Source: Eutypella sp. D-1
Lineage: Eukaryota; Ascomycota; Sordariomycetes; Xylariales; Diatrypaceae
NCBI GenBank assembly: GCA_023313575.1
Contig: JAJTTP010000008.1
Location: forward strand, 372,001 to 436,000
Direction of reading: 5' to 3'
Length of the DNA stretch: 64,000 nt
Shown: positions 60,043 through 61,779 of the stretch, in pieces
Position numbering within the stretch: the first letter of the stretch is position 1
How the letters are laid out: every line of letters begins with the position of its first letter
Made by a program: the position numbers and the translations under genes
Notes under the pieces: generated by a model
What the model saw: only the letters and a program-made list of their open reading frames with translations
Told to the model about the DNA's origin: nothing
Databases searched by the model: none

Positions 60043-61779
60043 ATGGGTTCGCCATCTGACAACACATCTGATGGCATGGATTTCGAGTACGACAATCGTT
60101 CGCGCTCATCTAGCAAGGTGGGCGGCCATAAGCTAACAACCTATAGCTGACCATGTACCTGTATGAACTGACCTTACTCTGTAATTTAGGGAGACATTTA
60201 CCGCGAAGGGAAAGAGAGCTTGCCCGCTGCCCAAGAGTGGCCGCCCGGCGATCGCGAGGATGGTGAAATTGTGCCATTGTCTGACGAGGTGAAAGGCCAC
60301 GATCCAGCCATTCATGTATCTCACTATCTATGTATACTGACCTTACTCTGGGAGGGGTATAGGAATATTTCTCTGAGCCACCCGGCAGGGACATTGATGC
60401 CACGCCCGATTACGAGGATGCTGGTGCTAAGGACGATGAGCCCAACAACGATAGGCATACTGTCTCGCATAAGGAGGTGGGAGGCCACAATCCAACGACT
60501 TATGTAATTAAGTACCTGTATAAGCTGATTTCATTGGGGATTTAGGAAGAGAGCCCGAAATCACCGGGTAGAAAGCTCGGAGCTGAGGACGCTGATTCCG
60601 GGAACACTATTTCGAAGGACGCCGATCCTGGAGACGATGATCCAGCAGACAGAGGGTCGGAGGACGTTGATTCCAAGAACGTTGAAATCAAGGACACTGA
60701 ATCCAAGGACGCTGACCCTGTAGCCCCGTCCAACGAGGTGGGCGCCCATAAGCTAACGGCTTATACCTGATCACCTGTATATACTATACTGACCGTAACC
60801 CGGGATTTAGGAACCTGTCCACGGGCTATCTGAGAACCATGTCGATACAGAAATGTTTGATGCTGATGAACCCCTTCCTACAAAGCTATACCGCAAACAC
60901 AAGTCCCCTCCTCCGCCTCCTCCGCCTCCCACTGATCTTCCTAAGCGCCCAGATTCCCTGGGCTCGCCGGATTCCCGCGATCGCTCTGCCACCCCTATTG
61001 AGGATGAGATTTTCGAACTGTCAGAGCGTCTTAAGGGGGGCCTATCAATCGACCAGAAACCGGCAGAAAAAGCCGACCCCGGACCGGTCCGTCCAGGAAA
61101 AGAGGAGGCAGCTTCCAAGACGGCGTTAACGTCATCGGGCTCTGCCGGCAAGCCGCCATCAACAGAGGGCGATGTGGAGGGGGAGAGTGAAATCGATAAG
61201 GCCAGACAACTCTTCGAAAACTTTAGTATCGTGGACGAAGAGAACGGTCAAGTGACCAGGGCGGCGGCTAAGGTCAACTGCCGACGACACGGAATCCAGA
61301 ACGTCAAAATCGAGGAAAACAAGACCGTGGCGAAATCCAACCCAAGCTTCCCCGAAGAACACCTTGCATTTCTTGAGAACCAGCATCGCTCGCATACTAG
61401 CGGCGGCGACGGCGGCAACAGCAGCGCCGAAAAGACCCCGCAAGACCGTCCAGAGCCTGACGACTCAAGGTGCCAGGCACCGGAGCGGCCCACGCGTGGC
61501 CGGTCGCTTCCCGCTCAACCCCGATCATCACTTCGTAGGCCGCGAAACCGTGCAGACCGTGTACGGGACAGATGCAAGAAAAATAACTCTACTGATGGAC
61601 AACGAATTGTCAAAACCGGACAGGAATTGCCAGCTAGGGTACAGAGACGGATCGCTTCGCGCAAGCTTAACGAAAGAGCTTGGTTGGGTGCAGTGGGGAT
61701 TCAACAAGATCACCCACACCCCCGCGTGGGTAGACTTGAAGAAAATTACCGTTCCGAGGAAATGGACGTGGATGAGTAA
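60043..61779 (+). CDS. Unrecognised acidic protein built from repeated exon-intron modules
   Basis: Exons 60043-60117, 60190-60288, 60363-60476, 60546-60737 and 60811-61779 give 482 residues as read. All four introns (72, 74, 69 and 73 bp) are phase 0, start GTG(G/A)(G/A), follow AAG or GAG, and resemble one another along their length. Exons 2-4 are 99, 114 and 192 bases, all multiples of three, and encode acidic Asp/Glu/Ser/Pro-rich sequence; exon 4 has KDAD-type iterations. Exon 5 has a proline run (KSPPPPPPPPTDLPKRP). No signal peptide or known domain is seen. In the last 300 bases another frame is open to 61789 and reads more like a folded domain (FPLNPDHHFVGRETVQ...ELGWVQWGF...PRKWTWM). 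A frameshift near 61440-61500 may therefore separate the true C-terminus from this model. Function is unknown. Confidence 0.65.
60118..60810 (+). repeat. Four homologous introns (A-D) in one gene
   Basis: Introns A 60118-60189, B 60289-60362, C 60477-60545 and D 60738-60810 share a 5' block GTGGGCGGCCATAAGCTAAC-like (A and D agree at 19 of the first 20 bases), an internal TACCTGTAT block in A, C and D, and an ACTGACC(T/G)TA block in A, B and D. Three end in ATTTAG or a close variant. They imply tandem duplication of an exon-intron unit or repeated insertion of one intron family. Confidence 0.8.

What the first reader, a model, noticed from the sequence alone, without database searches (positions are those of the whole stretch)
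60043..60810. Tandem exon-intron modules with four homologous introns in one gene
Four consecutive introns of 69-74 bp are alike over most of their length. All are phase 0, all sit at (A/G)AG|G(G/A)A junctions, and they separate acidic exons whose lengths are all multiples of three. Introns normally diverge fast, so this suggests recent module duplication or a family of mobile introns (introner-like). Symmetric modules can be gained, lost or skipped without breaking the frame, so the gene could make variable-length acidic N-termini. I do not know a named family with this layout.
Basis: partly seen in the sequence, partly recalled or inferred. Interest (0 to 1): 0.75.

Follow-up and report, generated by a model that had tools for sequence, protein, structure and literature searches.

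The report
Fungal gene with four sister introns
A little-known gene in a fungus carries four introns that are copies of one another, best explained by repeated copying of a short piece of coding end plus intron inside this one gene, not by roaming mobile introns; whether it varies the protein is untested.

Summary
Four 69-74 bp phase-0 introns (60118-60189, 60289-60362, 60477-60545, 60738-60810) are 65% identical overall and 61% outside splice signals, z 4.7-9.9 against shuffles. Codon statistics support a five-exon, 482-aa gene. In 268.5 kb of this genome its six intron pairs score best among 1295 neighbouring intron-like pairs.

The mobile-intron reading is not supported: three pattern searches of the 48.5-Mb genome found no further convincing copy. 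Similarity also crosses the 5' splice site into the last 48 nt of the preceding exons, in register (p below 1e-4), ends there, and is not detected downstream. The repeated unit is therefore about 48 nt of exon end plus the intron, which explains shared phase, shared junctions and symmetric exons.

Unusually, the introns are more alike (60%) than the coding ends copied with them (46%, p = 0.011). The protein has only three detected relatives and a low-confidence fold; the fungus is near Diatrypaceae. Known mechanism, unusual degree. Splicing, exon skipping and module-number variation are untested.

The parts
60043..60117 (+). exon 1 (25 codons; ATG at 60043)
   Evidence: open, codon-usage score +0.24 bits/codon in this frame, other five frames negative
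60118..60189 (+). intron 1 (72 bp), GTGGGC...CTGAC...TTTAG
   Evidence: homologous to introns 2-4; codon score negative in all six frames
60190..60288 (+). exon 2 (33 codons)
   Evidence: +0.18 bits/codon in frame, next best frame +0.08
60289..60362 (+). intron 2 (74 bp), donor GTGAAA
60363..60476 (+). exon 3 (38 codons)
   Evidence: +0.26 bits/codon in frame, next best frame +0.03
60477..60545 (+). intron 3 (69 bp)
60546..60737 (+). exon 4 (64 codons), with a degenerate internal short repeat at 60683-60715
   Evidence: +0.31 bits/codon in frame, other frames negative; 15-nt period, 2.2 copies
60738..60810 (+). intron 4 (73 bp)
60811..61779 (+). exon 5, 322 codons and stop; conserved C-terminal part
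   Evidence: three protein clusters of 307 aa at 84-89% identity
60070..60117 (+). exonic part (48 nt) of repeat unit 1
   Evidence: in-register similarity of the four exon ends, none detected beyond -48
60241..60288 (+). exonic part of repeat unit 2
60429..60476 (+). exonic part of repeat unit 3
60690..60737 (+). exonic part of repeat unit 4

Best explanation
A five-exon gene whose N-terminal part grew by local (intragenic) duplication of a unit of about 120 bp: the last 48 nt of an exon plus the whole following intron. Because each copy brought its own splice sites and its own codon register, all four introns are phase 0, sit at the same kind of junction and bound frame-neutral exons. Stretches of 51, 66 and 144 nt of exon without detectable mutual similarity in register separate the units. 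The coding ends then diverged faster than the introns, as expected of an acidic, probably disordered segment under little or diversifying amino-acid constraint, possibly with some exchange between intron copies. Shown by computation: intron homology, exon-end homology in register and its boundary, coding-like character of the exons, no further copy found in the genome by patterns. Inferred: that the introns are spliced as drawn, the order and mechanism of duplication, and the cause of the faster exon divergence.
For: Introns homologous. Last 45 nt before the final codon of the four exons: 124 of 270 pairwise identities against 78.0 (sd 8.0) for codon-shuffled flanks, 0 of 20000 as high, and 0 of 17984 in-frame slides as high. 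By block: -24..-3 40% (p = 0.013), -48..-24 51% (0 of 10000), -60..-48 28% (p = 0.62), no excess farther out. MAFFT aligns the four 48-nt ends without a gap. Flanks downstream of the introns show no significant excess (p 0.13-0.38; 0.08-0.41 with the other null). Codon-usage score in frame 0 is +0.18 to +0.31 bits in E1-E4 (training segments: mean +0.25, lowest -0.15 of 55) and below -0.2 in all six frames of all four introns. No further convincing copy in 48.5 Mb. Introns 60% and exon ends 46% identical by column, permutation p = 0.011; pooled pN 0.56, pS 0.48 for the exon ends.
Against: Local alignment of whole exons does not by itself show homology: of 10 DNA pairs only E3-E4 is below 0.05 (p = 0.0045), and that match is not in the register of the introns; of 10 protein pairs only E1-E2 is (p = 0.04). 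One exon-end pair (2-3) is not significant alone (p = 0.22). The rankings of pairs by exon end and by intron do not agree. No transcript and no relative's DNA was seen, and the donors (GTGGGC, GTGAAA, GTGGGA) are poor matches to the fungal consensus as I recall it.
Confidence: 0.72

Rival explanations
1. Introner-like or other mobile introns: the intron alone copied itself into four sites of this gene, for instance by reverse splicing at AG|G sites.
For: Introns are more alike than exon ends; all four sites are AG|G; local alignments of whole exons are mostly not significant.
Against: Exon ends are related in register for 48 nt; no convincing copy outside the gene with patterns that recover 3, 2 and 4 of the four known copies; intron against own reverse complement not better than shuffles (p 0.095-0.81) and no flank repeat over 3 nt.
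Confidence: 0.13
2. The gene is a single-exon 308-aa reading frame (60853-61779) and the upstream repeats are untranslated or decayed sequence, not exons and introns.
For: The three relatives in the protein collection begin at the same internal Met, as a mechanical gene caller would have it; no transcript seen; exon ends show no amino-acid constraint between copies.
Against: Codon usage of E1-E4 is coding-like in the one frame that joins without stops, and the repeats between are not; each of the four repeats has AG|GT, a CTGAY branch-like site and TAG.
Confidence: 0.1
3. An old array of whole exon-intron modules whose introns are kept alike by gene conversion while exons drift. This overlaps with the best explanation, so the odds given do not sum to one.
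For: Introns more alike than exon ends; in the 5' half introns 1 and 4 agree at 29 of 34 sites but at 21 of 35 in the 3' half, while 2 and 4 go the other way (15 of 34, 26 of 35); half-against-half permutation p = 0.012.
Against: With the break point left free the same kind of test gives p = 0.086; detectable similarity stops at -48 instead of covering the exons.
Confidence: 0.2

Closest known systems
Intron duplication within the same gene in fungi (tandem duplication; the introduction of PMC4457414 reports it as under 1% of single intron gains in Zymoseptoria tritici; passage seen)
   Same: Copies of one intron inside one gene, no dispersal found to other genes
   Different: Here four copies, already diverged, and the copied unit includes 48 nt of coding sequence; whether that is so in the cited cases I did not see
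Introner-like elements of fungi (PMC4457414, PMC9860276; passages)
   Same: Several spliceosomal introns related in sequence in one genome
   Different: [quoted passage not shown] these lie in one gene at about 65% identity
Sister stwintrons and cropped sister introns of Hypoxylaceae, same order Xylariales (PMC8469720; passages)
   Same: Related introns, occasionally two in one gene, in the same fungal order
   Different: No 10-nt palindrome and no terminal inverted repeat above chance here
Same-phase alternatively spliced 5' exons, such as those of troponin T (TNNT3, PMC2447309; one abstract passage)
   Same: Several exons of one phase class at the 5' end of a gene; that their product is an acidic hypervariable N-terminus is recalled, not read
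   Different: Splicing variants are documented there and not here; here only exon ends are detectably duplicated

Membership tests
Introner-like elements | Copies in many unrelated genes of the genome | tested here: not met
   Whole-genome pattern searches: 3 of 3, 2 of 3 and 4 of 5 hits lie in this gene; the two others look like chance (25, 26). More diverged copies could be missed.
Introner-like elements | Near-identical copies | tested here: not met
   60-72% pairwise identity
Introner-like elements | Terminal inverted repeats or target-site duplications (present in some families only) | tested here: not met
   Self against reverse complement p 0.095-0.81; longest flank repeat 3 nt
Sister introns of Hypoxylaceae | 10-nt palindrome WTTCTAGAAA and terminal inverted symmetry | tested here: not met
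   Best match 5-6 of 10 letters; no symmetry above shuffles
Intragenic exon-intron duplication | Intron copies confined to one gene | tested here: met
   whole genome, patterns; profile on 268.5 kb
Intragenic exon-intron duplication | Adjoining exon sequence duplicated with the intron | tested here: met
   48 nt upstream in register; downstream side tested and not significant
Intragenic exon-intron duplication | Relatives with fewer copies | not testable with these tools
   No relative's DNA was reached; the three protein clusters cover exon 5 only
Alternatively spliced cassette array | Isoforms lacking whole modules | not testable with these tools
   No RNA data

The most novel reading that the evidence does not exclude
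The sister introns act as homology handles: because they stay alike while the coding ends diverge, unequal exchange or conversion between them adds and removes frame-neutral acidic modules, so the locus is a built-in generator of length and charge variants of a disordered protein, at DNA level between strains and possibly also by skipping at RNA level.
Probability: 0.12. Interest if true: 0.55.

Novelty: new member of a known kind. Interest (0 to 1): 0.33.

Why it matters
It is a well-delimited case of introns multiplying inside one fungal gene by duplication of exon end plus intron; duplication within a gene is reported as a minor source of recent intron gains in one fungus (passage). It allows a direct comparison of how fast introns and the coding ends copied with them diverge, and it shows how phase-0 symmetric exons can arise without mobile introns.

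Tried and rejected
Introner family: rejected after genome-wide patterns. The extra hit (C23:3161044) lies upstream of an intradiol-dioxygenase-like reading frame (my reading of the sequence, no domain search) and is not found by the intron profile at E up to 10. The extra hit (C34:2396722) shares, by eye, nothing beyond the pattern. RNA structure in the introns: the consensus fold has 4 pairs and no compensatory change. Ancestral coding of the first 27 nt of the introns: differences by codon position 15, 13 and 20 of 48 each, not clearly periodic. Protein family: no Pfam match reaches its cut-off for the protein or its three relatives. A fold: mean pLDDT 48.7 for exon 5, so no structure search was made. 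The greedy intron scan missed the known introns and was replaced. Bacterial promoter and terminator scan: nothing usable for a fungus. Literature: in the listings (up to 20 papers each, titles and abstract starts) I saw no paper on such a gene; most were about other things. One paper search was left unused.

Full report
What is there. The window is G000:C71:372001-436000 of a 48.5-Mb assembly in 72 contigs. A control gene of the window (27311-30712, minus) has its best-ranked named relatives in Monosporascus ibericus (57% identity over 100%) and Diatrype stigma (64% over 79%) (listing), both Xylariales, the second Diatrypaceae, so the fungus is probably near Diatrypaceae; the species is not identified.

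Gene model. Joining 60043-60117, 60190-60288, 60363-60476, 60546-60737 and 60811-61779 gives 482 codons without an internal stop. A codon-usage score trained on ten long reading frames of the window is +0.24, +0.18, +0.26, +0.31 and +0.09 bits per codon for the five exons in that frame (55 training segments: mean +0.25, lowest -0.15). For E1, E4 and E5 the other five frames are negative; for E2 and E3 the best other frame is +0.08 and +0.03. The introns are below -0.2 in all six frames, and 500 placements in the 56.4-59.8 kb stretch, taken as noncoding, never exceeded -0.099 in their best frame. The training frames (10 of the 13) and the noncoding stretch were picked by eye, not from an annotation. 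Retention of an intron would end or shift the frame: introns 1 and 4 have TGA as codon 11, intron 3 ends with an in-frame TAG, intron 2 is open but 74 nt long.

Introns. The MAFFT alignment gives 274 of 419 identical aligned sites; outside donor, branch and acceptor 200 of 329. Alignment columns 1-27 are 70% alike, 28-49 55% and 50-77 68%. Shuffles give z 4.7-9.9. In 268,501 bases of the same genome the gene's six pairs beat the other neighbouring pairs. A profile of the four, run on the same sequence, finds the four introns (by construction, E below 1e-15) and then only a fragment in L025 at E = 0.078.

Not mobile. Pattern GTGGGNGGCCAYAAKCYAACNNCTTAT with 3 mismatches finds 3 of the 4 introns and nothing else in 48.5 Mb; TAYCTGTATANRCTGACCTTACT with 3 mismatches finds 2 of the 4 and one place in C23, which is not an intron relative; a gapped pattern that fits all four finds these and one place in C34 that looks like chance. 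The reversed-pattern controls found 0 each. A more diverged family could escape these patterns. The DNA search with intron 1 alone found only itself, but it missed introns 2-4 as well, so it is not evidence.

The unit. Upstream of the introns the four exon ends are alike in register: 124 of 270 identities over 45 nt, against 78.0 for codon-shuffled flanks (0 of 20000 as high) and 81.8 for in-frame slides (0 of 17984). Sliding any one flank by 3-24 nt lowers the sum from 124 to 88-116. The excess ends at -48. Downstream no significant excess was found (p 0.13-0.38; 0.08-0.41). So the copied unit is about 48 nt of exon plus the intron. Whole-exon local alignments are mostly insignificant (1 of 10 DNA pairs and 1 of 10 protein pairs below 0.05), which is what a short, diverged related end in otherwise unrelated exons would give, but it is also the result that speaks most against duplication of whole modules.

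Rates. By alignment column, introns outside splice signals are 60.5% and exon ends 45.9% identical (permutation p = 0.011; 54 and 45 columns). In the exon ends third codon positions are not less alike than first and second (50%, 46% and 43% over 45 nt), and pN 0.56 is not below pS 0.48. This fits relaxed or diversifying change; values are near saturation, sites are few, and positive selection is not shown.

The protein. In a collection of 5.8 billion proteins the gene has three relatives, all 307 aa and covering exon 5 only, 84-89% identical, without name (7475 and 7994 candidates scored); no Pfam family reaches its cut-off. The control gene has 696 relatives. So the gene is lineage-restricted as far as this collection shows; annotation gaps could hide others. 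In its own genome only this locus matches. The AlphaFold2 model of exon 5 is of low confidence (mean pLDDT 48.7, alignment of 4 sequences), with short predicted helices, which fits disorder but may also reflect the thin alignment. E2-E4 are acidic; a basic stretch lies near residues 400-419 (my reading of the translation). I can assign no function; a disordered nuclear protein is a guess.

Verdict. Real, well delimited and unusual in degree (four diverged intron copies in one fungal gene, introns more alike than the coding ends copied with them), but the mechanism, intragenic duplication, is known. The proposed splice variants remain untested.

Noticed in passing
60036-60059: A short reading frame (ATG at 60036, 7 codons, then TGA) overlaps the proposed start at 60043 in another frame; it could depress translation, or the true start may differ.
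   Followed up: no
L022 (G000:C71:1-9000): The first 9 kb of the contig are 15-34% GC by kilobase, then 51%: an AT-rich block such as repeat-induced point mutation leaves (the cause is recalled, not tested).
   Followed up: no
60811-61779: The three relatives differ from this protein and each other in blocks that change partners along the alignment, as if recombined; judged by eye, and their DNA and hosts were not available.
   Followed up: partly
27311-30712: Minus-strand gene whose relatives carry PF20162; one unnamed relative at 99% (69% covered), two at 79%, then 63-66%, so close relatives of this fungus exist in unnamed data.
   Followed up: partly
L014, about 2194-3828: Intradiol-dioxygenase-like gene downstream of the chance pattern hit (my reading, no domain search).
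   Followed up: no
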